Origin: Pseudidiomarina piscicola
GTDB taxonomy: Bacteria; Pseudomonadota; Gammaproteobacteria; Enterobacterales; Alteromonadaceae
Assembly (NCBI RefSeq): GCF_902806985.1
Contig: NZ_CADCXY010000007.1
Location: forward strand, 1 to 64,000
Length of the DNA stretch: 64,000 nucleotides
Reading direction: 5' to 3'
Shown: positions 17,282-63,995 of the stretch, one piece after another
Layout: each line of letters starts with the position of its first letter
Position numbering within the stretch: position 1 is the stretch's first letter
Position numbers and translations under genes: made by a program
The notes under the pieces: generated by a model
Database searches by the model: none
What the model was told of the DNA's origin: nothing
The model's input: only the letters and a program-made list of their open reading frames with translations

Positions 17282-17336
17282 ATTTAACCAAACTGCGTAT
17301 TTACTGAGCAAACGGTCGAAAAACCCGAAAAAGCGG

Positions 17337-17365
17337 TTGACTCTGAAGCCAAAAACTCGTTTAAT
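17337..17365 (+). promoter_or_regulatory. Promoter of tRNA-Phe
   Basis: TTGACT (17337-17342) and TTTAAT (17360-17365) are 17 bases apart and are followed by a GC-rich discriminator just ahead of the tRNA at 17376, as expected for a stable-RNA promoter. Confidence 0.6.
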
Positions 17366-17375
17366 ACGCCCCGTT

Positions 17376-17451
17376 GCCCGGATAGCTCAGTCGGTAGAGC
17401 AGAGGATTGAAAATCCTCGTGTCGGTGGTTCGATTCCGCCTCCGGGCACCA
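17376..17451 (+). tRNA. tRNA-Phe (anticodon GAA), attachment site of the accessory region
   Basis: A complete 76-base tRNA with encoded CCA. The acceptor stem GCCCGGA pairs with the 3' TCCGGGC, the D-loop is AGCTCAGTCGGTAGAGC, the anticodon loop TTGAAAA holds GAA, and the T-arm contains GGTTCGATTCC. It is nearly identical to E. coli tRNA-Phe. Its 3' half is repeated at 24434-24480 and in part at 61628-61658, so it is the attB/attL site of tandem integrated elements and remains intact at the chromosomal end. The last codons of the integrase gene on the other strand lie within it. Confidence 0.97.
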
Positions 17452-18502
17452 CTATTTTAAAGGCCTCGCTGGCAACAGCGGGGCTTTTTACTTTCCGCCT
17501 TTGTACCAGATTTGTACCAATTGTACCGCCGACGTTGTTTGCCACACGTTTCAGCTGCCCTTTCGCCAAGTGTGCATAGCGCAACACCATCTCAAAAGAT
17601 GCCCAACCGCCAAGCTCCTGCAATTCTTGTAAGCTTGTACCGTTTTGCACATGCCAGCTTGCCCATGTATGGCGTAAATCGTGCCAACGAAAATTTTCAA
17701 TACCCGCTCGTTTCAGTGCTGCATGCCATGCTTTGGTAGAGGTACGTTCAACTGGCTTGCCCTGATAGACAAAACAGTAGTCGTTATCCTCGCCCTGCAC
17801 TTCATGCAAGACTGCCAGCGCATCGTTATTCAGTGGAACATTGATCGCCCGACCTGATTTCGACTCATCGGGATGGATCCATGCGTAACCGCGTTCTAAG
17901 TCGACCTGATCCCAACGCAGGTAACTGACATTGGATTGCCGTAAACCTGTCGCCAGTGAAAAGATCGCCATTAACTGCAAATGGCGCGGTAATTCACTTA
18001 ATAATCGCTGTGCTTCGTCGGGTCGTAACCAACGTATTCGCTTTCTTGGCTCCTTATAGAGCTTGATAGCGGGAATATGGTCGATCCATTCCCATTCGTC
18101 GCGTGCTGCCCGTAAAATCGCTCTAATCAATGCTAGGTAACGATTTGCGGTACTGGTTGACGCAATTTCTAAGCGTTTATGCTTAATTGCATCGACTACA
18201 TCACGATTGACTTCATCAAGGTACAAAGCGCCGAGATAGTTATCGAGCCAACGGAGCTTGCCTAAGTCTTTCTTTGCATCGGCTTTGCTGGCTCGTTCTT
18301 GTAACCAGCGCACAACAGCTTCTTTCCATGTGCGACGTGGTTTTTCTCCCAGTTTATACACCCGCCAAGCTTCGCTCTTTAGGTGGTCTTCATACTCTTG
18401 TGCCCGCTTCTTTTCTTCGGTGCCAGTAGAGCGCGATACTCTCTCTCCGTTTGGTGCCGTGAAGCGAGTCCACCAGAGGTTCCCACGTTTGTACAATGCC
18501 AT
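17387..18502 (-). CDS. int: Tyrosine recombinase/integrase of element 1
   Basis: A site-specific recombinase of 371 residues that integrates and excises the element at tRNA-Phe. All catalytic residues can be placed: R188 (ATGLRQSN), K215, H274-x-x-R277 (HDLRH), W300 in the second His/Trp position and nucleophile Y309 (RYAHL). The N-terminal SAM-like core-binding domain spans about 55-150. The C-terminus after residue 320 (VPGGGIEPPTRGF) is translated from the complement of the tRNA terminator and tRNA-Phe, so the sequence of the attachment site fixes the protein's tail. The gene points towards the tRNA, the usual layout for tRNA-targeting elements. Confidence 0.95.
   Translation of the reverse strand: MALYKRGNLWWTRFTAPNGERVSRSTGTEEKKRAQEYEDHLKSEAWRVYKLGEKPRRTWKEAVVRWLQERASKADAKKDLGKLRWLDNYLGALYLDEVNRDVVDAIKHKRLEIASTSTANRYLALIRAILRAARDEWEWIDHIPAIKLYKEPRKRIRWLRPDEAQRLLSELPRHLQLMAIFSLATGLRQSNVSYLRWDQVDLERGYAWIHPDESKSGRAINVPLNNDALAVLHEVQGEDNDYCFVYQGKPVERTSTKAWHAALKRAGIENFRWHDLRHTWASWHVQNGTSLQELQELGGWASFEMVLRYAHLAKGQLKRVANNVGGTIGTNLVQRRKVKSPAVASEAFKIVVPGGGIEPPTRGFSILCSTD
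17463..17489 (+). terminator. Rho-independent terminator of tRNA-Phe
   Basis: GCCTCGCTG pairs with CAGCGGGGC (one T-G wobble) over a 4-base loop and runs into TTTTTA. It ends the tRNA transcript. It belongs to the element side of the junction and also encodes codons near the end of the integrase on the opposite strand. A similar hairpin follows the third att copy near 61.67 kb. Confidence 0.8.
17501..17527. repeat. TGTACCA direct repeats, left end of element 1
   Basis: TTGTACCA occurs at 17501 and 17512, then TTGTACC at 17521. The same motif, with the same 11-base spacing of the first pair, recurs at 24309-24347 near the other end of the element, and again at 61698-61716. The placement suggests arm-type integrase binding sites. 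The left copies also lie inside the integrase reading frame. Confidence 0.6.
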
Positions 18503-18711
18503 GATGATTCCTCCTCATCACAACCTTGTTGCGGCGTGTTCACACCAAAAGAATATAAAGCATCCAGGTATTCCACAAGGTCTTTTTCGAGGAACACCCA
18601 ACGCTTGCCAGGCTTTGCCGCTTTGATACGTCGACTGCGTGCCAATTCGCCCAAGTGGGATTCTGAAATACACAGGTATTTCGCTGCTTGGTGAAGGTCG
18701 AAAGTTTTCAT
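18379..18711 (-). CDS. Excisionase-like helix-turn-helix protein (AlpA/HTH_17 type)
   Basis: A small DNA-binding protein of 110 residues. The first 55 residues form a MerR/AlpA-like winged HTH (LHQAAKYLCISESHLGELARSRR ... GKRWVFLEKDLVEYLDAL shape), as in excisionases and regulators of integrative elements. The remainder has no recognisable domain. Its 3' end overlaps the integrase start by about 124 bases in another frame, which could couple their expression or mean the C-terminal part is not under strong selection. The probable role is directionality factor or regulator of int. Confidence 0.78.
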   Translation of the reverse strand: MKTFDLHQAAKYLCISESHLGELARSRRIKAAKPGKRWVFLEKDLVEYLDALYSFGVNTPQQGCDEEESSWHCTNVGTSGGLASRHQTEREYRALLAPKKRSGHKSMKTT

Positions 18712-18714
18712 GCC

Positions 18715-19974
18715 TCATTCCTCCGACTCCAGCAGAGTTCCAAGTTTGACGAACTTCACTTGTTTTTCTGCGACCTTTTTCTCGACGTAAGCATCGAATG
18801 AAATGTGTTTGTTCTCTGCCGATTTGAAGTAACTTCTGGCGTGTTCAAGATAAACGGCAAGTGCTTCTGCCATTGACTCGATTTCGTACTTAACCATGAA
18901 GCTTGTTAAATAGCCTGTGGTTCCGACAAAGATGGATTCATCGCTCGGTATACACTCAAAGTCCAGACGGTGAATATTTTCCACAGGGTGCGGAGTAAAC
19001 TTTGCCTTTGAGAGTGTTCGCCATTCAGCAGCGAGCGGCCAACGTGAGCGATTACTATCGCTTGGATTAATGTCACAAAGCGACAACCATTGCGTGGTGT
19101 AGTAGCGCCACAATGAGTTAAATAGCTCGATGATAAAGTCGGGATCGATCGACTGACAGGTTTTCAACGCTTCGCGGCGTAACTGGAATTCAAGCCGCCA
19201 GACAGAGCTTTCACCATCCCAGCCGTTTTGCTGCCACAGCTCTTTGAAGAAGACTTTCTCTGATTTTTCGATCTCTTTGGTTTTGTTATATAAGCGCGCA
19301 GAGACCTCGCCAGATTGACCGAAGACATTTCCCAACAGCTGTTCCGATTCTAGATAAAACGAGCGGCGATTCGAGCGACACCGCCAGCGTTTAGCATCGA
19401 TGGCCTGCCAGTCAATCGTACTGGTAAAATCAACGCATAAATCAATCCGACTTATAGAGCCATTATCCGCGTCCGCTAATAACGAATCAGCTACCTCTCT
19501 GGCGGCCTGAAGTGACGACTCATAGCCACAACATGAAAGTAGTTCACTTGATATCTCCACATACAGCGGAGGAACCTTACCTGCATTTTCTCCTGCAACA
19601 CGGAGACGAAAGTGAGCGTTTGATACGACAAAAGAATGCATGCCCTGACCTTTGGCGTTAACCTTAAAAGGTATGTTAGCGAGGCGCAGCGCGGCAACTG
19701 CCTTTCCGCTGCGCCGCCCGCCTTTAGCTATTTCTTTCTTTTCTTGGAGCTGGCTTAGGAGCCCTGAACGCACTTCGCCGCGAAACGACAAATAAAGGCT
19801 GTCGATTCCAGATCGGATAATTCGGGTTTGGTGGTATTTTGGGGGTGCTGTGTTACAAAGTGGCGCACCCTGCTCGTCGGCTAGATTGGCATTGACACCG
19901 AAATCAGTTTCCTTCTTTGAAGCAAACAGATTATCGCCGTCTGTGTTTTTTTGGACTTGCTCATTTTTTGACAT
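18715..19974 (-). CDS. Replication initiation protein (Rep_trans/rolling-circle type)
   Basis: A 419-residue protein resembling the replication initiation factor family of rolling-circle plasmids, filamentous phages (RstA-like) and integrated satellites. Family-like stretches are GIDSLYLSFRGE near residue 55, SRIDLCVDFT near 180, ARLYNKTKEIEKSEK near 240 and WRLEFQLRREAL near 280. The first about 45 residues look disordered. The probable role is nicking and initiating replication of the excised element. It is separated from the HTH gene by only 3 bases, so rep-HTH-int probably form one leftward operon. The catalytic Tyr cannot be assigned with certainty. Confidence 0.75.
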   Translation of the reverse strand: MSKNEQVQKNTDGDNLFASKKETDFGVNANLADEQGAPLCNTAPPKYHQTRIIRSGIDSLYLSFRGEVRSGLLSQLQEKKEIAKGGRRSGKAVAALRLANIPFKVNAKGQGMHSFVVSNAHFRLRVAGENAGKVPPLYVEISSELLSCCGYESSLQAAREVADSLLADADNGSISRIDLCVDFTSTIDWQAIDAKRWRCRSNRRSFYLESEQLLGNVFGQSGEVSARLYNKTKEIEKSEKVFFKELWQQNGWDGESSVWRLEFQLRREALKTCQSIDPDFIIELFNSLWRYYTTQWLSLCDINPSDSNRSRWPLAAEWRTLSKAKFTPHPVENIHRLDFECIPSDESIFVGTTGYLTSFMVKYEIESMAEALAVYLEHARSYFKSAENKHISFDAYVEKKVAEKQVKFVKLGTLLESEE

Positions 19975-20044
19975 TGTTGAAACCTCAGATTGTGAATGAG
20001 GTTTCTTACTTTATGCATCTAAACAGGAATGTTTAGGACGTCGA

Positions 20045-20845
20045 CTACGCATTTGATGTCCTTGCATCTTTTGACCGTCTGTACAGGTGCTTTTGCATGG
20101 CGGCACCTATATCTTTACCTTCAGTTATCAATTTCAGCAATTGGTTCATTTCATACACTGACTCAACAGTTACTGTACCGTCGATATCTTCGAGCGCGGC
20201 AATCATAAATCGATAATCATCTAACCCAACAGTCCGACTTCCGATCGGATATTTCCCAACGATTGCTTTGGATAGCTTTCCGAGCTTTACGGTATTACGT
20301 TCAGAGGTCCAACGTGAGATATATTCCGCAATTTCCGCGTTAGTAATAACCGATGGGTCAATTGAAACTGCCTCAAAAATAATTTCTTCGTACCTTTCAA
20401 CTCGTGTACGAACCTGTTCAACCATGTCACAAATAGTTCGATTTCGATGCGCTAGAGCTTTAACATTAAAATGCAACGCCATGATGAAACTAGTGAGTGT
20501 TTTCCGTGCTTCATCTGTACCCATTTGACTCTCTAACGCGTCAGTCGAGAGCTCGAAATCTTTCATCTGATCAAGAAATGACTCTTTTATATTCAATGGC
20601 TCGGAGTGCTTAGCAGCCTTCTCAAGAACTGTATCTATACCAGCCACTGCCGCAAACAATGCTAGGAATTCAATGAAGGAAAGTGAATACAGATCTGACC
20701 ACTTAGTAACGTATTTTTGAAGCTTTTCTTTCGCTTTTGGATCATTAGCCAGCGATTCGTAAAATTCACGTTCCCCCTCCTTTGAAGATTTCCGTAGCTT
20801 ATGAACTCCCTTTAATATTTTTTCTTTTTTTGATGTCAAAGTCAC
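20045..20845 (-). CDS. Unrecognised helical cargo protein of element 1
   Basis: A protein of 266 residues with no family I recognise. It begins with a Lys/Glu-rich helix (residues 1-50), then a short apolar segment around LYSLSFIEFLALFAAVAGID (about 52-71) that could be buried or membrane-associated. A mostly helical body follows. No catalytic motif is evident. It lies between rep and the GIY-YIG gene on the same strand, in the position where small satellites carry accessory or defence genes. A purine-rich stretch upstream (GGGATGATGTGAC) is a weak ribosome site. Confidence 0.7.
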   Translation of the reverse strand: MTLTSKKEKILKGVHKLRKSSKEGEREFYESLANDPKAKEKLQKYVTKWSDLYSLSFIEFLALFAAVAGIDTVLEKAAKHSEPLNIKESFLDQMKDFELSTDALESQMGTDEARKTLTSFIMALHFNVKALAHRNRTICDMVEQVRTRVERYEEIIFEAVSIDPSVITNAEIAEYISRWTSERNTVKLGKLSKAIVGKYPIGSRTVGLDDYRFMIAALEDIDGTVTVESVYEMNQLLKLITEGKDIGAAMQKHLYRRSKDARTSNA

Positions 20846-20925
20846 ATCATCCCTATTTGGTCAGTAAAACAATCTTTTACCAGATGAGTTCGCCTACTAC
20901 CTAGGATCTCATCACTATACCGCTC

Positions 20926-21294
20926 TTATTCACACCATTTCGGCCAACGATTGTAGCCAATTTTTGGATTATTAGATTTATGCTTACGAATCATTTCTAC
21001 CTCTTTCTGAGCCAACTCTGCCTCTGAACAATTTAGAGACTCCCAAAGTATCTGTTTCCTAACAGTATAATCTCGCTTGACTGCTTCAGAGAGGTTTTCA
21101 AAATCGCGATTTACCACCGCAATATCTGGACTACCAAAATATCGGTAACTTCCGACGCTATCTTTACCGATGTATATTTTCCCTGTTGGATAAGTCACCA
21201 TATATACCTGCTTCACTTTCTGACTCCTCGCCGATCCATATATCTTTTCCTCGAACTCGCGCTTGATCGTTAAGTGATAAGAGCTATCATACAA
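20926..21294 (-). CDS. GIY-YIG-superfamily nuclease-like protein
   Basis: A small protein of 122 residues. Residues about 29-50 contain the two-strand core VYMVTYPTGKIYIGKDS, equivalent to GIY...YIG, followed by a conserved RYFGSP segment. A C-terminal helix with a Glu (ELAQKEVEMIRKH) is placed like the metal-binding Glu of GIY-YIG nucleases, followed by GYN. The first motif is degenerate (MVTY), so activity is uncertain. Family members act as homing, repair or restriction nucleases. In this element it could nick DNA or act in defence. It is on the same strand as the 266-residue gene upstream of rep. Confidence 0.68.
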   Translation of the reverse strand: MYDSSYHLTIKREFEEKIYGSARSQKVKQVYMVTYPTGKIYIGKDSVGSYRYFGSPDIAVVNRDFENLSEAVKRDYTVRKQILWESLNCSEAELAQKEVEMIRKHKSNNPKIGYNRWPKWCE

Positions 21295-21403
21295 ATATGT
21301 AACATAAAAGAGAGTTTTTGAACATCTAGCTTTAACCTGATTTTACTTCTCTTTTCTCCAGCGCTAATCCAACTGCGCATTTGATTCGATAGAGGGATGT
21401 CGT

Positions 21404-21748
21404 ATGATGAACATAGAAATTTTAAAAGAGTTAATTCAACATGAAAATGAAGTTCTCGAGAGCTACATTAAGGAGTCTGTGTACCATCGAGAAAGTGTAT
21501 ATGGAGTGATAAAAAAGCTAATCGATGAGGGTGGGCAAACCAACAAATTGGTCGGTAAGCAGGTGAAAATTCTAGAACAATGTATTCAACCCGTTTTCAA
21601 TCATCCGTGCCCTGGACTTTCATTTATGGAGTTCGGCTGTTATGGCGATAACATAGTGGAGCCTTTTGATATTCTACATCCGCATGAGAGCGGAGATTAT
21701 TTATGTAATGATTGCCAGCACGTTTATAACGAATATGAGCAAAGGTGA
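21404..21748 (+). CDS. Small protein with putative C-terminal zinc ribbon
   Basis: A 114-residue protein with no recognised family. The N-terminal 60 residues are charged and helical. The C-terminal half holds four Cys in the pattern C-x(10)-C ... C-x2-C (HPCPGL, FGCYGD, LCNDC), plus His, suggesting a zinc-binding knuckle. It is divergent from the GIY-YIG gene across 109 bases. It starts at tandem ATGs preceded by AGAGGGATG. Its role is unknown; it may be regulatory or nucleic-acid-binding. Confidence 0.6.
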   Translation: MMNIEILKELIQHENEVLESYIKESVYHRESVYGVIKKLIDEGGQTNKLVGKQVKILEQCIQPVFNHPCPGLSFMEFGCYGDNIVEPFDILHPHESGDYLCNDCQHVYNEYEQR

Positions 21749-21907
21749 GCGCCCTAAACCCATAGTTCGAATAGAGCCTAGGTCAACTAGTGACGATTAC
21801 TAAGTAGTAATAACTAAAAATACACAGCTTTAATTTGATGCAACATTTAAATTCTAAACGTGGCAGTGTGAAGCCATGAATAAGGCTTACCGCCTTCGCA
21901 GTTAATA

Positions 21908-22438
21908 TTATAGTGGGAATATGGTAAGAACTGGCGTGATTCGGCTCTCCTGAGTACATTGCTCATATGCTTGCCTGATTCCTAGCATTATCGAAACCGG
22001 AGTAGTATCACTAGCTCTATTTTGTACTATGCGGTCACGGCAGTTTTTATCTAAGCCACTAGACTCAACGCAAAACGCATCAATCTGGTGGACTGAATGA
22101 TTAACTAAATCTTTATTAATCGCAAAGACAGCTAATTCAACTTTGTTCTGCGATAGCTTGACCAAATGTTCTTTGCATTGGTTTGAGCCCTGTGGATAGA
22201 GCCGTGCGGGAAACCCTTGAAGCATAGACTGCAAGTCACTGTTTATCTCTATACTCAACGCACGCCCCCACTTGTCAAATGCTCTAAATTCGATACGTTG
22301 GTGAGGTTGTGCGTGGTTTTCCGGCTCTGGGTTTAACTGGGCAAGTACCGTGTAGATTAGGACGCCACCAACCAAAACTACTATAATTTTAAACAAACCA
22401 CCCCCCCTAAATAATGCATTAGATATAAGTGTCTCCAA
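21908..22438 (-). CDS. Membrane-anchored hypothetical protein, 5' side disturbed by IS
   Basis: A protein of unknown family with one N-terminal transmembrane segment (LFKIIVVLVGGVLIYTVLAQL) and a roughly 140-residue periplasmic domain containing five Cys. The longest version starts at a TTG (22438), and its frame stays open into the adjacent IS. A run of G followed by TTG at 22396 is a likelier start, giving 162 residues beginning at the membrane anchor. The IS3-family copy inserted 15 bases upstream of 22438 will have removed the original promoter. Confidence 0.55.
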   Translation of the reverse strand: METLISNALFRGGGLFKIIVVLVGGVLIYTVLAQLNPEPENHAQPHQRIEFRAFDKWGRALSIEINSDLQSMLQGFPARLYPQGSNQCKEHLVKLSQNKVELAVFAINKDLVNHSVHQIDAFCVESSGLDKNCRDRIVQNRASDTTPVSIMLGIRQAYEQCTQESRITPVLTIFPL

Positions 22439-22517
22439 TTTTAAGCAGCAGTTTGGACTTCCCAGACTTTGCTAGACACTTTTAACAGTTACAATGTAAC
22501 TCAAACTAGAGGTGTTT

Positions 22518-22796
22518 ATGAGCAAAGGCAAACGGTATACCGAAGAATTTAAAATTGAAGCCGTCAAGCAGGTCACTGAGCGCGGCCATTCTGTTTATGA
22601 TGTCGCTGATCGTCTGGGCATTTCCGTCAAATCACTTTACGACTGGCGTGCTAAATACGGTCAGGACAATAAAGCCAATAAATCCTCCGATGAACAACTG
22701 CGCATAGCAAAGCTTGAAGCTGAGATAAAACGCGTTAAGGAGGAACGGGATATATTAAAAAAGGCCGCAAAGTACTTTGCAGGCGAGTCCGAGTAA
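22518..22796 (+). CDS. IS3-family transposase OrfA
   Basis: A 92-residue DNA-binding subunit: HTH (YTEEFKIEAVKQVTERGHSVYDVADRLGI region) and a C-terminal leucine-zipper-like coiled coil. The ATG at 22518 is chosen because GAGG stands five bases upstream; a GTG at 22512 overlaps that site. Programmed -1 frameshifting at A-AAA-AAG near its end would fuse it to OrfB to make the active transposase, as is standard in this family. Confidence 0.9.
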   Translation: MSKGKRYTEEFKIEAVKQVTERGHSVYDVADRLGISVKSLYDWRAKYGQDNKANKSSDEQLRIAKLEAEIKRVKEERDILKKAAKYFAGESE

Positions 22797-22843
22797 AGTA
22801 CGCCTTTATCCGTGATCATCAAAATCAGTTCTCTGTTTCGGCC

Positions 22844-23665
22844 ATGTGCCGGGTGTTGAAACTGAACCGCAGTGGCTTCTATGCCTGGTTGAAGAAACCT
22901 TTGAGCGACCGCGCCATAGAAGACGCACGGCTTTTAAAACGCATTAAAGCGTTCTTCATTGCCAGTGGCGGCACTTACGGCAGCCCCTGGATCCACAAAG
23001 ACTTACGTGAAGCCGGTGAAAAATGCAGTGTTCATCGTGTTGCTAAGATCATGCGCCTCAATAAGCTCAGAGCTCAAATCGGTTATAAACGTCGGCATAT
23101 AAAAGGCGGTAAGCCTGGCCGGGTGGCAGACAATGTCTTAGAGCGGCAGTTTAACCCAAAAGCGCCGAATACTTCGTGGGTAAGCGACATTACCTACGTG
23201 CGCACCTATGAAGGTTTCCTTTACGTGGCAACGGTTATCGACTTGTTCTCCAGGCGCGTTGTCGGCTGGTCAATGGACAAAAATATGGATAAACACCTGG
23301 TTATCAGAGCACTGCTCATGGCGGTTTATCAGCGACGTCCAAAAGAGAAGGTGTTGGTGCATAGCGATCAGGGCAGCCAGTACGGCAGCTCTGATTACCT
23401 GGCGTTCATGAAAGAGCACAACCTAATACCGTCGATGAGCCGACGTGGGAACTGCCACGACAACGCTGTTGCTGAAAGCTTCTTTGCCACGTTTAAAAAG
23501 CGGGTTATTCGAAAGAAAATATACCCAAACCGAAATGAGGCGAAGACTGAGATATTTAATTTTATCGAGATGTTTTACAATCCGAAAAAGCGTCATTCTC
23601 ATACAGGCGGCGTATCGCCTGCTAACTTTGAAAAGGCGTACTTTGAGAATTTACAGACTGTCTAG
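22844..23665 (+). CDS. IS3-family transposase OrfB (DDE integrase domain)
   Basis: The catalytic half of the IS3 transposase. The DDE triad is visible in VSDITYV, VHSDQGSQY and DNAVAESFF. The open frame extends upstream of the ATG to the frameshift site at 22757, so the natural product is probably the OrfAB fusion; the ATG-initiated form of 273 residues may be a minor product. No stops or frameshifts are seen, so the element appears active. Confidence 0.92.
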   Translation: MCRVLKLNRSGFYAWLKKPLSDRAIEDARLLKRIKAFFIASGGTYGSPWIHKDLREAGEKCSVHRVAKIMRLNKLRAQIGYKRRHIKGGKPGRVADNVLERQFNPKAPNTSWVSDITYVRTYEGFLYVATVIDLFSRRVVGWSMDKNMDKHLVIRALLMAVYQRRPKEKVLVHSDQGSQYGSSDYLAFMKEHNLIPSMSRRGNCHDNAVAESFFATFKKRVIRKKIYPNRNEAKTEIFNFIEMFYNPKKRHSHTGGVSPANFEKAYFENLQTV

Positions 23666-23755
23666 TGAAAGCTGGGAAGTCCAGTTATTCGTAGAACTAA
23701 TGAGTCACTTTCGGTTATTGCTTTGTTTAAGAAACATTACAAACTAAATTGCTTC

Positions 23756-24238
23756 TTACTTAATATCGTCCTTGTCTACTTTTAGCACCGCTTGATATGT
23801 ATCATTCAAGTACGTGCGAAGGCCACTCAATATTTTTCCACTCCAGCCGTCGGAAGTTACATCACCACTAAAACCGATATCTTTTGAGCCCTCGACAAGA
23901 ACCCTAACTTGGGTATCTTTGCCATTTAGAGACCTAAAATAGACCCCAGCTAAGACATTCCAATCATGTGCTGTCATTCCGTGTTCACCAATGACCACGC
24001 CCTTAATCTTATCTACCTTCCGCAATGAAAAACCTGCATTTCCCAAGCCAACCTTAGCGGCCTCATACACTTGTTCCGGACTGTAACCGTAGAAGGTTTC
24101 CGCATGCTGGTACTCAGACCAACCGGTTTTCCCCTCCACCGCATCAAAATCGACTTCGGAAGCATCTGTTGGCATCATACCTATCGTCGCACAGCCGTTT
24201 AACATAACGAGGCTGATTACTAGCAATAGTGTTTTCAT
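23756..24238 (-). CDS. Putative lipoprotein, DUF3568-like size class
   Basis: A predicted lipoprotein of 160 residues. Starting at the ATG 24238, a signal peptide ends in the lipobox LNGC with Cys16. The mature part contains the segment VYEAAKVGLGNAGFSLRKVDKIKGVVIGEHG, an alpha/beta pattern typical of small envelope lipoproteins. Family membership is only suggested. An upstream ATG (24259) would push the signal peptide inside. It is the last gene of element 1 before the right att copy. Confidence 0.62.
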   Translation of the reverse strand: MKTLLLVISLVMLNGCATIGMMPTDASEVDFDAVEGKTGWSEYQHAETFYGYSPEQVYEAAKVGLGNAGFSLRKVDKIKGVVIGEHGMTAHDWNVLAGVYFRSLNGKDTQVRVLVEGSKDIGFSGDVTSDGWSGKILSGLRTYLNDTYQAVLKVDKDDIK

Positions 24239-24308
24239 AAAATATCCTTGTAAAACCACTTCAATTTAGAAACGTTTACACCTAGACAACAAAAACACAA
24301 AATAACAG

Positions 24309-24347
24309 ATGTACCAAATTTGTACCAGTTCAGATGGAAATGTACCA
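24309..24347. repeat. TGTACCA direct repeats, right end of element 1
   Basis: ATGTACCA at 24309, TTGTACCA at 24320 and ATGTACCA at 24340, about 90 bases inside the right att copy. They mirror the three copies near the integrase end (17501-17527), which supports a role as integrase or excisionase arm sites. Confidence 0.6.
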
Positions 24348-24433
24348 ATTTGACCGTAAATATGAGAAGAACGAAACGCCGCAACTGGTTGTTTTTATTA
24401 ACTATTGGTGATTACCAACTAATGTCATAACTA

Positions 24434-24480
24434 ATTGAAAATCCTCGTGTCGGTGGTTCGATTCCGCCTCTGGGCACCAC
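24434..24480. repeat. att copy 2: duplicated tRNA-Phe 3' half
   Basis: About 46 bases repeat the tRNA-Phe sequence from the anticodon loop to the CCA end with one mismatch (CCTCTGGG for CCTCCGGG). The 5' half of the tRNA is absent, so this is not a gene. It marks the junction between element 1 and element 2. Confidence 0.93.
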
Positions 24481-24589
24481 CATCCCTTCCAATGCCGTCC
24501 ATACTTGTACTTTAAGCTTTAATTAATCAAGTACTTGGACGGGGTTGGAGTCTTTTTTAGTCTTTTCTGGTTCAGTAACATCCACACTT

Positions 24590-24644: not shown

Positions 24645-24983
24645 ATGCCCCGTAACACTAAACCATTGAGCGCTCGAGAAGTTAGCGAGGCTAAGCCCAA
24701 AGACAAAGAATACAACCTTTCTGATGGTCAAGGACTGCACCTAAGAGTCAAACCATCGGGCAAGAGGGTTTGGATCTTCAATTATTTCGAGCCCTTCACC
24801 AAACGCCGCAGAAATTTAACCCTTGGCACCTTCCCCGATTTGTCTTTAGCGTTAGCACGTGAAAAGCGCCAGCAAAATCGGGAGCTACTCGCTCAGGATA
24901 TTGATCCCATATCTCATCGTGACGAACAGTTTGAAACGAAACGAGCTGCTGCCAATAATACATTCAAAGCAGGGAGGGTATAA
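24645..24983 (+). pseudogene. Truncated P4-type integrase (N-terminal arm-binding part)
   Basis: The first about 100 residues match the N-terminal domain (DUF4102) of P4-like tyrosine integrases: LSAREVSEAKPKDKEYNLSDGQ, GLHLRVKPSGKRVWIFNY, and LTLGTFPDLSLALAREKR. Full proteins have about 400 residues. Here the core-binding and catalytic domains are missing and the frame ends after 112 residues. It was presumably the integrase of element 2, lying 165 bases inside the left att copy. Confidence 0.85.
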
Positions 24984-27997: not shown

Positions 27998-30900
27998 ATG
28001 TTTCAGCGCATTATTCAGTTTGCTGTCGCCAATCGCCTGTTATTGGTATTGGCTTTATTCAGCATCAGCATTGCGTCATTTTTTATTATTCCCAAACTTA
28101 ATCTGGATGCCTTCCCCGATGTTACCAACGTTCAGGTAACGGTAAATACGGAAGCACCCGGATTAGCAGCGACCGAAGTCGAGCAGCTTATTACCTATCC
28201 GATAGAGTCGGTGATGTATGCCCTGCCCGACGTCAAAGAAGTTCGGTCAATCTCAAAAACAGGTTTATCGGGCATTACCGTGGTATTTGACGAGAGTGTC
28301 GATATCTACTTTGCCCGGCAACTGGTATTCGAGCGGCTGCAAGCGGCAAAGGAGTTGATTCCAGAGGGAGTCGGCACGCCCGAAATGGGCCCTAACTCTT
28401 CCGGTCTCGGCCAGGTTTATCAGTATCTGCTACTTGCCGAGCCGGGCTCTGGTGTCAGTAGCATGGAGCTACGCAGTCTTAACGACTATGTGGTTAAACT
28501 GCTACTGATGCCCGTTGAGGGAATTACCGAAGTCTTGTCCTTTGGCGGTGAAGTTAAGCAATATCAGGTTAACCTCAATCCCGCCAAGCTGCTGTCTTAC
28601 GACCTTACCCAGCAAGACGTCATGGGCGCGGTCAACAAGAATAACGGTAACGTTGGTGGTTGGTATATGCCCCGCGGTCAGGAGCAGTTGGTTATTCGCG
28701 GCACCGGCTGGCTGGAAAGCGGTAAAAAAGGTCTACAGCAGATACAACAAATACCGCTCAAAACCGTTGACGGCGTTTCCGTAACACTGGGCCAGGTTGC
28801 CGACGTCGAAATCGGCAGTTAAATTCGCCAGGGAGCGGTCTCAATGTCGCGTAAAGTCGACGGCGAGGTCAACCAGCTGGGCGAAGTGGTGTCGGGTATT
28901 GTGCTCAAACGCATGGGCTCGAATACCAAAGCCACCATCGACGGTATTAAAAAGCGCATTCCGCTTATTCAGCAAGCATTACCCGAGGGTGTCACCTTTG
29001 AGCCGTATTATGATCAGGCCGATTTAATACAAAAAGCCGTATCTACGGTCGCGTATTCACTGCTCATTGCCTTTGTCTTTATTATCGCAGTATTAGCACT
29101 GTTTTTGCTCAACATACGCGCTACTTTTTTAGTGTTACTGTCCATTCCCGTTTCTATCGCCATTGCCCTGATGGTAATGTCCGCGATGGGCATGTCAGCT
29201 AACCTGATGTCGCTGGGCGGGATTGCTGTTGCCATTGGTATGCTGGTCGACGGCTCCGTGGTGATGGTTGAAAACATCTTTAAGCACTTAAGTCGTCCGG
29301 ATAGTGAACACCAAGACGACGCCGAGCAACGCACAGAGCACCGCGACCCAGATCCTCAGGCAGCCAAACTCGATAGCCATGGTATCAAGCTGCGAGTTAA
29401 GGAAGCGGCGAACGAAGTGGCACGACCGGTATTCTTTGCCGCCATGATTATCTTGGTGGTCTTTATGCCACTGTTTAGTTTTCAGGGTGTTGAAGCTAAA
29501 TTATTTGAGCCCATGGCTATCAGTATTATGTTGGCCATTATCTCCGCGGTTTTTGTGGCCATCATGGTTGTACCGGCATTAGCCAGTTACTTTTTCAGTC
29601 GGGGTATTAAGCCTCGTGAAAATAAACTGCTTAAACCACTAGATAATGGTTATAAAAGACTATTATCGGTGGCGTTACGCAGTAAAAAGGCTGTTATTAC
29701 CCTGGCCGGTGTGCTGTTTGTCGGCGCTTTGGTGTTAGTGCCTCGTCTCGGCACAGAATTTGCGCCCGAATTGGAAGAAGGCACGATTAATATTCGCGTG
29801 ACATTAGCCCCCTCCTCTAACCTTGAAACGGCCTTAGAGGTGGCTCCGAAGCTTGAAAAAATCCTGATGTCGTTCCCGGAAACCACCTACGCACTCAGCC
29901 GCATTGGACGAGCTGAAGTGGGCGGTGATCCAGAGCCTATCAGCAACATCGAGATATATGTGGGCCTTAAGCCGCAATCCGAATGGACAACGGCATCCGA
30001 TCGCTACGCCTTACAAGAAAAAATGGAGGCAAAACTAGATGCTCACCCAGGCTTGTTGTTTAATTTTTCACAACCTATTGCAACACGGGTTGATGAACTG
30101 CTCTCAGGTGTAAAATCGCAGCTAGCCATCAAACTATTTGGACCCGAGCTTGACGTGTTGGCCCGTAAAGGCCAGGAAATAGAAGGTGCCGTCAAGCAAG
30201 TTGACGGGGCGGTTGCTGTAGCGATGGAGCAAATAAAAGGTGAAGCACAACTCGTGGTTTCGCCGAAACGCCAGCAACTCTCACGCTACGGCTTAAATGT
30301 CACCGATGTACTGAGCGTTGTCGACAATGGCTTGGGTGGCGCTTCGGCAGGCCAGATCATTCGCGGTAATGAGCGCTATGATATTTACGTGCGGCTGGCC
30401 AAGCAATTCCGCGATACGCCGGAGTCTATTCGTTCGTTACGCCTGTTAACTCCCTCAGGGGCCTGGGTAACCTTAGGCGAAGTCGCCCACGTCGCAATTG
30501 AATCAGGACCACCGCAAATCCGTCGTGATGACGTACAGCGTCGCGTTGTGATTCAATCGAACGTTCAGGGTCGTGACATGGGTAGCGTGGTTGCCGATAT
30601 TAGGAAGGCGATTGACGAGAAGGTGGATTTACCAACCGGTTACTCAGTCGACATTGGTGGCCAGTTCGAAAGTCAACAACGAGCACAGGAGCGCTTGTCC
30701 ATTGTCGTTCCCATATCGCTGGCACTCATCGCCCTGCTGCTTTATTTTGCTTTCGGCACCATGGGTCAAGCCATGTTGATTTTGGTGAATGTACCATTGG
30801 CAGTCATCGGCGGTATTGTGGCACTCTATGTGTCAGGACAGTACTTATCGGTGCCCAGCGCCGTGGGTTTCATCACACTGTTTGGTGTGGCGGTACTAAA

Positions 30901-31195
30901 CGGTGTGGTTCTGGTCGAGAGTATTAACCAGAGAATAACCGATGGGCATGCGGTTAATGATGCCGTGTTTGATGGCGCGTGGTCGCGACTACGCCCGGTA
31001 TTAATGACAGCAATAACCTCAGCGTTAGGACTCATTCCCATGCTGTTTGCAACCGGTGCAGGGGCTGAAATTCAACGCCCACTGGCTACCGTCATTGTTG
31101 GTGGTTTGGTATCAGCTACTCTGCTGACATTGGTTATCTTACCCGTGCTCTATCCTTGGTTTTCGAAACAAAAAATTAAGGATCTGAGCCGTTAG
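27998..31195 (+). pseudogene. czcA: HME-family RND cation pump (CzcA-like) with in-frame stop
   Basis: The frame continues from 27998 to 31195 apart from one TAA at 28820-28822; the part before (274 residues) and the part after are in the same phase. Rejoined it is about 1065 residues, the family length. It has TM1 and the first porter domain before the stop, and TM2-TM12 with the proton-relay helix AVAIGMLVDGSVVMVEN after it. The lesion looks like a GAA-to-TAA change within VADVEIGS-x-IRQGA. Nothing else is damaged, so it is recent, a strain variant or a sequencing error. An ATG at 28844 with AGGGAG upstream could restart translation. Confidence 0.85.
28844..31195 (+). CDS. C-terminal part of CzcA, possible restart product
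   Basis: This is the open frame after the stop in czcA, 783 residues from the ATG at 28844. AGGGAG at 28831-28836 lies seven bases ahead, so ribosomes that stop at 28820 could reinitiate. The product would lack TM1 and much of the first porter subdomain and is unlikely to pump on its own. Whether two halves could assemble is untested. Listed because it would be expressed if the stop is real. Confidence 0.5.
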   Translation: MSRKVDGEVNQLGEVVSGIVLKRMGSNTKATIDGIKKRIPLIQQALPEGVTFEPYYDQADLIQKAVSTVAYSLLIAFVFIIAVLALFLLNIRATFLVLLSIPVSIAIALMVMSAMGMSANLMSLGGIAVAIGMLVDGSVVMVENIFKHLSRPDSEHQDDAEQRTEHRDPDPQAAKLDSHGIKLRVKEAANEVARPVFFAAMIILVVFMPLFSFQGVEAKLFEPMAISIMLAIISAVFVAIMVVPALASYFFSRGIKPRENKLLKPLDNGYKRLLSVALRSKKAVITLAGVLFVGALVLVPRLGTEFAPELEEGTINIRVTLAPSSNLETALEVAPKLEKILMSFPETTYALSRIGRAEVGGDPEPISNIEIYVGLKPQSEWTTASDRYALQEKMEAKLDAHPGLLFNFSQPIATRVDELLSGVKSQLAIKLFGPELDVLARKGQEIEGAVKQVDGAVAVAMEQIKGEAQLVVSPKRQQLSRYGLNVTDVLSVVDNGLGGASAGQIIRGNERYDIYVRLAKQFRDTPESIRSLRLLTPSGAWVTLGEVAHVAIESGPPQIRRDDVQRRVVIQSNVQGRDMGSVVADIRKAIDEKVDLPTGYSVDIGGQFESQQRAQERLSIVVPISLALIALLLYFAFGTMGQAMLILVNVPLAVIGGIVALYVSGQYLSVPSAVGFITLFGVAVLNGVVLVESINQRITDGHAVNDAVFDGAWSRLRPVLMTAITSALGLIPMLFATGAGAEIQRPLATVIVGGLVSATLLTLVILPVLYPWFSKQKIKDLSR

Positions 31196-61627: not shown

Positions 61628-61730
61628 TCGATTCCGCCTCCGGCACCACTATTCTAAAACCCTCGCAAAAAATTGCGGGGCTTTTTACTTTCCGCGTTTG
61701 TACCAGATTTGTACCAATTGCACCGCCGGT
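61619..61730 (-). pseudogene. Integrase C-terminal remnant (third element)
   Basis: On the minus strand the sequence GGAIGTNLVQTRKVKSPAI, then GFRIVVPEAE, matches the C-terminal part of the intact element-1 integrase (GGTIGTNLVQRRKVKSPAV, then AFKIVVPGGG). TTGTACCA repeats (61698, 61709) and a tRNA-terminator-like hairpin are copied too. Catalytic parts are missing. The remnant faces att copy 3 as the intact gene faces the tRNA, so it derives from an element to the right of this att. Confidence 0.85.
61628..61658. repeat. att copy 3: tRNA-Phe 3' end remnant
   Basis: TCGATTCCGCCTCCGG followed by CACCACTATT repeats the tRNA-Phe T-arm to CCA end and the first element bases next to it, with one G missing. 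It marks the right border of element 2 and the start of the third remnant. Confidence 0.85.
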
Positions 61731-61846
61731 AATCCCCAAAAACCGAAGCCGTTTCCTATGCACTCCCACCACCGTAAGCAGCACCGTCCAAACCGTCGGC
61801 TTCATGCCGAACGGCTGTCAACTACGGCAAAGCTTCGCAAATACTC

Positions 61847-63482: not shown

Positions 63483-63995
63483 TTAGTTAGCGCTGGTTGC
63501 TGCGTAACTTAGATCTTCATGTAGGGCATACAAATAGGTCCACCACTCACCAATAGACTTTCTGAAGTCTTGCTGCAGCGCGCTTGATTTCTCTTTACCT
63601 ACCGCGGCCTCTAAGCGCTGCCAGACACCAGGGTCGTCGGCATCAAGCGCTTTAGGGTCAGTAAAGTATTCAACCACGAAGTAATCAGCTTGTCCGCGTC
63701 CGCCCATCGTATAGTACCAGGCGGCTCCCGGTCCTCCATCGTCTTTGAGTCCCTCTTCGATGGCCGCAACGGTCGACTCGAAGAGCTCATAGTTGTTTAC
63801 TTTAAAGTTGTAAACGGCAACAAAATTACCACCTGTGGTCTCAATGCTGCTCCAATCAGGCAGATAACTGGCCATGTTGTGATAGGTCGAGTCGATATGC
63901 GGAACCACTTTATCTCTAACCACGCCTCGGCAGCCTTCACCTACCGAGTCATCGGCGAAAAAGCCTTGCCAGTTCTTATAGGTGCTGGTCACCAC
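63483..63995 (-). CDS. Hypothetical protein, 5' end uncertain at window edge
   Basis: At least 170 residues of a soluble protein with no recognised family. The sequence has the alternating apolar pattern of a ferredoxin-like/dimeric alpha-beta barrel (NFVAVYNFKVNNYELFESTVAAIEE shape), with GAAWYYTMGGRGQADYFVVEYFTDP in the middle, and ends in a helix. The frame is open to the window edge, so the true start may lie beyond 64000. Function unknown. Confidence 0.6.
   Translation of the reverse strand: MVTSTYKNWQGFFADDSVGEGCRGVVRDKVVPHIDSTYHNMASYLPDWSSIETTGGNFVAVYNFKVNNYELFESTVAAIEEGLKDDGGPGAAWYYTMGGRGQADYFVVEYFTDPKALDADDPGVWQRLEAAVGKEKSSALQQDFRKSIGEWWTYLYALHEDLSYAATSAN

What the first reader, a model, noticed from the sequence alone, without database searches (positions are those of the whole stretch)
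20045..22438. Unrecognised cargo of a small Rep-type element: candidate defence or interference module
Between rep and the IS lie a 266-residue helical protein, a GIY-YIG-like protein, a divergent protein with a possible zinc knuckle, and a membrane-anchored protein. Small integrase-rep satellites of this size often carry anti-phage or phage-parasitism genes in this slot. None of the four is a family I can name apart from the GIY-YIG fold. The assignment to defence is speculation from location, not from sequence.
Basis: inference. Interest (0 to 1): 0.7.

Follow-up and report, generated by a model that had tools for sequence, protein, structure and literature searches.

The report
Variable half of tRNA-jumping mobile element
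This stretch is the gene-swapping half of a small mobile element that inserts into a transfer-RNA gene; its relatives often carry anti-virus systems here, but these particular genes are not proven defence genes, and one of the four belongs beside the element's own replication gene.

Summary
The ORFs are real but are not one module. They lie in a 7.0-kb element inserted in tRNA-Phe (17406-24483), bounded by a 50-nt direct repeat. Its core is an integrase, an AlpA-like factor and a rolling-circle Rep (model matches PDB 4cij, Foldseek 5e-11, Z 15.1).

A genome scan gave 152 Rep relatives; the best 80 were kept. Of 84 loci analysed, 47 have exact attachment repeats.

The 266-aa protein is not ordinary cargo: a homologue lies directly upstream of rep in 53 of 67 loci (44 of 58 without seeds and duplicates). 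Yet its alleles swap: in 21 pairs with Rep identity of 60% or more it is under 35% identical in 15, the integrase in 1.

The rest of the slot is variable cargo. At least 12 of 47 elements carry known or candidate defence genes there. The window's own cargo has none recognised: a 96-aa GIY-YIG-type protein (start revised to 21216), a four-cysteine protein whose one detected relative lies near Gabija, a membrane-anchored protein, and a lipoprotein-like gene beyond the IS. Defence is plausible by location, not shown.

The parts
17376..17451 (+). tRNA-Phe gene, the insertion target, still intact
   Evidence: ARAGORN
17406..17455 (+). left attachment repeat (3' end of tRNA-Phe)
   Evidence: 50-nt direct repeat, 96% to 24434-24483
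17387..18502 (-). tyrosine integrase; its last codons are read from the antisense strand of the tRNA gene
   Evidence: PF00589 4.7e-34; overlap with tRNA coordinates
17500..17527 (+). putative integrase arm-type repeats (TTTGTACCAGATTTGTACCA)
   Evidence: repeat D2, with related motif at 24308-24346; TTGTACCA 5 times in the window against 1.74 expected, 2 of 100 shuffles as many
18379..18711 (-). AlpA-like helix-turn-helix / excisionase
   Evidence: PF12728 4.1e-10; excisionase model 6.2e-7
18715..19974 (-). Rep: predicted rolling-circle replication initiator of the Rep_trans fold
   Evidence: AF2 model pLDDT 84.7; Foldseek 4cij E 5e-11, Z 15.1 over 221 residues at 3.2 A; 5 of 67 family members hit PF02486
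20045..20845 (-). 266-aa all-helical protein, positional partner of rep with swapped alleles (o266)
20926..21216 (-). GIY-YIG-type protein, 96 aa with the revised start (ORF open to 21294)
21404..21748 (+). 114-aa protein with four Cys shared with its one detected relative, which lies about 0.65 kb from a Gabija pair
21908..22438 (-). 176-aa protein with one N-terminal hydrophobic segment (read from the sequence); one weak relative, lipoprotein-like
22454..23683 (.). IS3-family insertion sequence, apparent 3-bp target repeat GTT
   Evidence: terminal inverted repeat I1; IS3 model 1.3e-95; target repeat read
23756..24259 (-). lipoprotein-like cargo gene (167 aa), 88% identical to the gene at the same place in the Pseudidiomarina sp. 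CB1 element
24434..24483 (+). right attachment repeat

Best explanation
The segment is the exchangeable half of a 7.0-kb integrative element of a widespread family with the order tRNA / int / alpA / rep / o266 / cargo / att repeat. Likely mode of action: the AlpA-like factor helps Int excise the element from the tRNA (inferred from the families). Rep nicks the circle and starts rolling-circle replication (fold shown by model, activity inferred). o266, encoded beside Rep, is a type-specific partner or immunity/induction factor of the replication module (inferred from fixed position plus allele swapping). The GIY-YIG-type protein and its neighbours are a replaceable load that acts against phages or rival elements, the GIY-YIG-type protein most simply as a DNA nuclease (inferred). 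How the element moves between cells is unknown; a helper phage is the best guess by analogy with PICMIs.
For: Ends and target. A further att copy in 4 of 19 genomes of the genus (own included) and no element gene in 3 genomes inspected. Rep fold. o266 homologue upstream of rep in 53 of 67 loci. Allele swapping. Cargo replaced between conserved ends in window versus Pseudidiomarina sp. CB1. Known or candidate defence genes in the slot of at least 12 of 47 relatives; more. In the same genus the G569 element carries an HNH-domain gene next to its o266, and a G564 contig has a GmrSD N-terminal domain before its first att copy (link to its integrase fragment, on another contig, assumed). GIY-YIG-type relatives in a type I restriction / PrrC locus, near PDC-S59, and in two integron-like arrays.
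Against: No window protein scanned matches PADLOC. 35 of 47 elements were not individually shown to carry a defence gene. Three GIY-YIG-type relatives sit among housekeeping genes and two (G081, G429) are interrupted by an in-frame stop. 13 upstream ORFs show no similarity to o266 by profile comparison and 19 of 86 loci had no qualifying ORF there. The o266 fold search gives no clue. I ran no search for packaging, oriT or helper signals.
Confidence: 0.5

Rival explanations
1. All four genes form one anti-phage module, o266 included.
For: The slot is defence-rich in relatives; o266 differs together with the cargo in several pairs.
Against: o266 keeps its place beside rep in elements with different cargo and stays when cargo changes (L031/L033). 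The GIY-YIG and 114-aa genes are on different strands, and none of the twelve inspected loci of relatives holds two of the four genes.
Confidence: 0.12
2. The element is an integrative mobilizable element: the Rep_trans-fold protein works as a MOBT-like relaxase and a conjugative element moves it.
For: [quoted passage not shown] Rep has this fold.
Against: The MOBT elements in those passages are from Firmicutes. No coupling protein is among the 25 of 60 Pfam families shown for the cargo. No oriT search was made.
Confidence: 0.25
3. The GIY-YIG-type gene and neighbours are passenger or selfish genes (integron cassette or homing type) without a defence role.
For: Two close relatives are in integron-like cassette arrays, three are alone among housekeeping genes, two (G081, G429) are interrupted by an in-frame stop and G070 has only fragments.
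Against: Intact here, with a good ribosome-binding site; one relative inside a type I restriction/PrrC locus and one near a PDC-S59 gene.
Confidence: 0.3
4. o266 is itself a fast-diverging anti-phage (abortive infection) protein that rides at a fixed place next to rep.
For: Extreme allelic divergence against stable neighbours; differs together with the cargo in several pairs.
Against: Beside rep in 53 of 67 loci, and all 3 matches in 196 family genomes, own included, lie beside rep, which would be unusual for pure defence cargo. No PADLOC match.
Confidence: 0.2

Closest known systems
PICMI (phage-inducible chromosomal minimalist islands, Vibrionaceae; PMC10803314, passages)
   Same: Minimal element of about 6-7 kb; int and alpA; one replication gene; an accessory slot at the far end that can hold restriction-modification, retron, DRT or PARIS genes or an unknown defence gene.
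   Different: PICMI has a primase (DUF3987/DUF5906) and sits at fis; here a Rep_trans-fold initiator, tRNA targets and a swapped o266-type gene. No helper phage is known here.
IntY/AlpA genomic islands I23, I44, I55 (PMC12595487, abstract and passages)
   Same: Tyrosine integrase plus AlpA, direct repeats at an RNA gene, defence cargo, no recognised transfer genes; an inovirus Gp2-like protein is common there.
   Different: They insert at tmRNA in Pseudomonas and share a region of about 18 kb; whether their Gp2-like protein is related to this Rep was not tested.
Rep_trans initiators and MOBT relaxases (PF02486; PDB 4cij, 4cwc, 4cwe)
   Same: Fold of Rep residues about 50-330.
   Different: Only 5 of 67 members reach PF02486 at E 0.01, best 7e-4, and the window Rep does not; here on integrated elements, with a further C-terminal helical part.
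P2/P4 antiviral hotspots (PMC9122126, abstract and outline)
   Same: A fixed slot in a small element that collects antiviral systems.
   Different: Different phage and satellite core genes (recalled; not compared here).
GIY-YIG nuclease family proteins
   Same: 42-48% identity over 74-76% of the 122-aa ORF to five plasmid proteins so annotated.
   Different: Stand-alone, 96 aa; no Pfam GIY-YIG hit.

Membership tests
PICMI | tyrosine integrase and AlpA/HTH_17 | tested here: met
   PF00589 and PF12728
PICMI | primase with DUF3987/DUF5906 | tested here: not met
   no such match in the ten proteins scanned; Rep has another fold
PICMI | integration next to fis | tested here: not met
   tRNA-Phe
PICMI | excision and packaging by a helper phage | not testable with these tools
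   needs infection experiments
Rep_trans rolling-circle initiators | fold of the catalytic domain | tested here: met
   4cij Foldseek 5e-11, Z 15.1, 221 residues, 3.2 A
Rep_trans rolling-circle initiators | match to PF02486 | tested here: inconclusive
   window Rep no hit; 5 of 67 members at E 0.01 or better, best 7e-4
Rep_trans rolling-circle initiators | catalytic tyrosine and nicking | not tested
   Y229 in RLY(N/D)K is invariant in 67 sequences; that it is the nicking residue is a guess
MOBT integrative mobilizable elements | oriT and use of a conjugative pore | not tested
   no oriT search made; transfer needs an experiment
GIY-YIG nucleases | Tyr and Y(I/V)G motif, conserved Glu and C-terminal Asn (recalled motif) | tested here: met
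   Y5, Y15, G17, E72, N89 invariant in 7 sequences
GIY-YIG nucleases | catalytic arginine (recalled) | tested here: inconclusive
   R25 is Asn in L140 and L141
known anti-phage defence systems | match to a PADLOC model | tested here: not met
   0 families for six window proteins at E up to 1
zinc-binding protein (o114) | four metal-binding Cys | tested here: inconclusive
   C69, C79, C101, C104 conserved in two sequences only

The most novel reading that the evidence does not exclude
A broad, unnamed family of rolling-circle, satellite-like elements uses the o266 protein as an exchangeable recognition or immunity factor: it tells the element which helper or rival it is dealing with, and swapping its allele, often together with a defence cargo, re-types the element while int, alpA and rep stay the same.
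Probability: 0.22. Interest if true: 0.72.

Novelty: new variant of a known kind. Interest (0 to 1): 0.5.

Why it matters
If right, this gives a sequence-defined family of small elements (152 Rep relatives in one scan; the 80 kept are mostly proteobacterial with some Planctomycetes, by record titles) with a mapped slot in which unknown genes can be tested for anti-phage activity, and a neighbouring gene whose allele swapping marks it as a possible specificity determinant. It also separates core from cargo, so that a screen would not start with the wrong gene.

Tried and rejected
Family scans (Pfam, PHROGs, NCBIfam, PADLOC) gave nothing significant for o266, o114 and o176 (best PHROGs match of o114 0.0084, unknown function) and no GIY-YIG model for the GIY gene; its family comes from annotated homologues.

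IMG/VR scans with o266 and with the GIY ORF found no relative. Phage and plasmid searches with o114, and plasmid searches with o266 and o176, found none. The window Rep has no match in the phage collection.

o266 fold searches: no match (best Foldseek E 1.5 in PDB, 1.7 in BFVD; best Z 4.1, many rows placing its C-terminal 60 residues on TetR-type helix-turn-helix parts, below the noise level stated by the tool). I claim neither a DNA-binding domain nor a new fold. A PDB profile search with o266 gave nothing meaningful. A PDB hit of the GIY protein to a designed TIM barrel was set aside as spurious.

Promoter and terminator scans were at shuffle level (10 promoter-like sites against 11.1 expected, 8 terminator-like against 7.0).

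Defence control: 133 proteins sampled from 406 flank ORFs of 45 loci matched 85 PADLOC families at 1e-8, against 310 for 133 cargo proteins. The tool reports families, not distinct proteins, and shows 25 of each, so this is indicative only. Some control hits look housekeeping by name (PolA-, DndA-, SspA-, DEDDh-like, my reading), but others look like real defence genes (type II methyltransferase and nickase, SoFic, type IV restriction, AbiEi), so the flanks are not free of them. The ten cargo proteins were picked because they already looked defence-like.

Counts and dropped rows. Without these nine the count is 44 of 58. L110 was left out of the profile test of unmatched ORFs (13 of 14 tested). 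One cargo ORF (L058:8488-9510, o266-like) was left out of the 133 but is in the 103. Nine of the 21 close pairs were aligned as DNA. The 21 pairs share members and are not independent. Only 80 of 152 Rep relatives were kept by the tool. The script stopped on an error after listing part of the loci; the o266 scan at its head had finished.

Papers: PMC10803314, PMC5704250 and PMC11389934 were seen as passages, PMC12595487 as abstract, outline and passages, PMC9122126 as abstract and outline; all others only as search listings. No paper naming this element family came up in nine searches; most subscription journals and preprints lie outside that library. A likeness of o266 to satellite master repressors came to mind from recall only and carries no weight here.

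Full report
What is there. The window holds an integrated element. A 50-nt repeat of the tRNA-Phe 3' end occurs at 17406-17455 and 24434-24483 (96%), and ARAGORN still finds the tRNA intact at 17376-17451. From the tRNA inward lie a tyrosine integrase, an AlpA-like helix-turn-helix protein, a 419-aa Rep, the 266-aa protein (o266), the GIY-YIG-type ORF, the 114-aa ORF on the other strand, the 176-aa ORF, an IS3-type insertion at 22454-23683 and a lipoprotein-like ORF. The finding's coordinates therefore cover the middle of the element, not a self-contained module. The GIY-YIG-type gene probably starts at GTG 21216, seven bases after AGGAG, giving 96 aa.

Rep. Pfam does not recognise it. An AlphaFold2 model from an alignment of 67 sequences (pLDDT 84.7) matches the rolling-circle initiators 4cij (Foldseek 5e-11; Z 15.1, 221 residues, 3.2 A) and 4cwe/4cwc (Z 11.9 and 11.3), well above the next rows (Z 6.8). 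Five of 67 family members reach PF02486 Rep_trans at E 0.01, best 7e-4. [quoted passage not shown]

The family of elements. A scan of one genome for each of 84,980 species found 152 Rep relatives, of which the best 80 were kept; by record titles these are mostly Gamma- and Betaproteobacteria, with some Planctomycetes and others. Five more lie in viral contigs. In 43 of these 47 ARAGORN places a tRNA gene at the integrase end (Phe, Arg, Asn, Lys, Met, Thr, Ala, Pro, Leu, His). The elements are 4.5-12.3 kb. In the window's own genus all 19 genomes searched, own included, have the speA / tRNA-Phe site, and 4 (own, G102, G564, G569) show a further 50-nt att copy. Three others inspected (G563, G566, G568) have a single att and no gene matching the element; in G566 other genes, among them a copper-ATPase-like one by my reading, sit next to the tRNA.

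o266 is not ordinary cargo. Of 196 genomes of the family, own included, 3 have a match, and all three lie beside rep. Across 86 loci with a Rep ORF (two of them duplicates), 67 have a co-directional ORF of at least 150 aa ending within 400 nt of rep, and 53 of those 67 match the o266 profile at E 1e-3; without profile seeds and duplicates it is 44 of 58. Thirteen of the other 14 were tested by profile comparison and show no similarity. The AlphaFold2 model is confident (pLDDT 93.5), wholly helical, and without a structural match.

Its alleles are swapped. Among 43 elements with all three proteins, 21 pairs have Rep identity of 60% or more. o266 is under 35% in 15 of the 21, the integrase in 1 of 21; medians are Rep 68, o266 25, integrase 73. 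L102 and L103 have Rep 91% and o266 28%. Nine of the 21 pairs were aligned as DNA. In three, detectable homology begins at or within 10 bp of the rep start (L103/L102 exactly there, L056/L084, L089/L072). In three it begins 89-156 bp inside rep (L066/L075, L068/L101, L084/L070), in one in the last 24 bp of o266 (L040/L055), and in two at the o266 start or 27 bp inside it (L078/L089, L031/L033). The window and Pseudidiomarina sp. CB1 (L028) are 87% identical in DNA from 17300 to 20157 and again from 23760 to 24479, with the middle replaced and o266 at 39%. The pairs overlap, so this is a pattern, not a test. Fixed place plus allele exchange is what one expects of a specificity, immunity or compatibility factor; that function is inferred.

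The cargo slot. PADLOC and Pfam scans of 133 cargo proteins gave reverse transcriptases in 4, AAA_15 and AAA_21 in 4 each, and DNA methylases, PRTase-CE, Fic and RloB (the first 25 families of each list are shown). Ten cargo proteins that looked defence-like were scanned individually: a type III methyltransferase (L048), a weak type III restriction match (L056, 8e-7), retron III-A and II-A partner proteins (L061, L064), AriA/OLD-like ATPases (L085, L090), candidate systems PDC-M31A and PDC-S20 (L096, L035), AbiLi (L102) and a type II methyltransferase (L103). L062 and L098 are counted as retrons from the reverse-transcriptase tally, the YxDD motif and matching gene order. That is 12 of 47, candidates included. 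In the other 35 elements 103 proteins matched 50 PADLOC families at 1e-6 (25 shown), led by PDC-M36A in two proteins and including Upx, PDC-S02, PD-Lambda-2_B, PD-T4-6 and HerA; I did not assign these to elements. The flank control gave fewer families (85 against 310 at 1e-8) but is not free of defence genes. Within the genus, the G569 element carries an HNH-domain gene directly upstream of its o266, and a G564 contig has a GmrSD N-terminal domain and an AAA-like fragment before its first att copy.

The window's own cargo. None of six window proteins matches PADLOC. GIY-YIG-type relatives occur in 8 of 196 family genomes and 4 of 369 class genomes, own included. Contexts: inside a type I restriction locus with PrrC (L126), and 0.4 kb from a PDC-S59 protein with TniQ/TnsC farther on (L130); an integrase-bearing stretch near tRNA-Arg (L127, interrupted by a stop); two integron-like arrays (L128, L129; repeats, the integron label is my reading); and three places among housekeeping genes, one interrupted by a stop (L139) and one beside a VapBC-like pair by my reading (L141). 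A partial match (L132) lies about 0.8 kb from a SIR2 gene. Two further hits, G122 (30%) and a fragment in G070, were not followed or gave no context. Seven aligned sequences keep the Tyr, Y(I/V)G, Glu and Asn positions but not R25. The 114-aa protein has one relative besides itself in 196 genomes (29%, E 3.5e-4), about 0.65 kb from a GajA/GajB pair (1.9e-197 and 1.1e-171); four Cys are shared. One case cannot carry an association. The 176-aa protein has one weak relative (26%, E 7.3e-4), lipoprotein-like by its start. The lipoprotein-like gene at 23756 is found only here and in CB1 among 196 genomes.

Comparison. The plan resembles PICMIs, which have int, alpA, a primase and a defence-bearing slot, sit at fis and depend on a helper phage (PMC10803314, passages). 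Two defining features, primase and fis site, were tested and not met, so this is not a PICMI, though it may work like one. It also resembles the IntY/AlpA islands moved by a jumbo phage (PMC12595487, abstract and passages). No paper naming this family came up in nine searches.

Verdict. A mobile element of a recognisable but apparently unnamed family. The slot argument is sound at family level, the defence label for these genes is unproven, and the most interesting gene of the four is the one that is not ordinary cargo.

Noticed in passing
61628-61735: A decayed copy of the element's left end: a 25-nt att match plus the paired TTGTACCA sites, with no integrase seen beside it. With the attR at 24434 it brackets about 37 kb; the parts I looked at (to 30 kb and from 57.5 kb) hold metal-efflux-type genes, and a gene that by eye resembles the one flanking the site in relatives lies beyond it (63483-63995). 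Everything from 17.4 to 61.6 kb may be stacked insertions at one tRNA.
   Followed up: partly
24645-24983: N-terminal fragment of a second integrase (Arm-DNA-bind_3, 4.3e-24) just beyond attR, with no recombinase domain in the ORF.
   Followed up: no
17387-17451: The integrase ends inside the tRNA gene, so its last codons are the antisense of tRNA-Phe; the same overlap is seen in L028 and L029.
   Followed up: partly
27998-31195: A heavy-metal RND efflux-type gene is split into two same-frame ORFs by a stop at 28820-28822.
   Followed up: no
22401-22407: A run of seven C (poly-G on the coding strand) near the start of the 176-aa ORF, a possible slippage tract.
   Followed up: no
L156:1-7334: Genome G564 has two further att copies on one contig, with a GmrSD domain, an AAA-like fragment and IS3-type transposase ORFs before the first, and its integrase fragment at the end of another contig: probably tandem elements.
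   Followed up: partly
L128 and L129: Integron-like cassette arrays, each with a GIY-YIG-type gene.
   Followed up: partly
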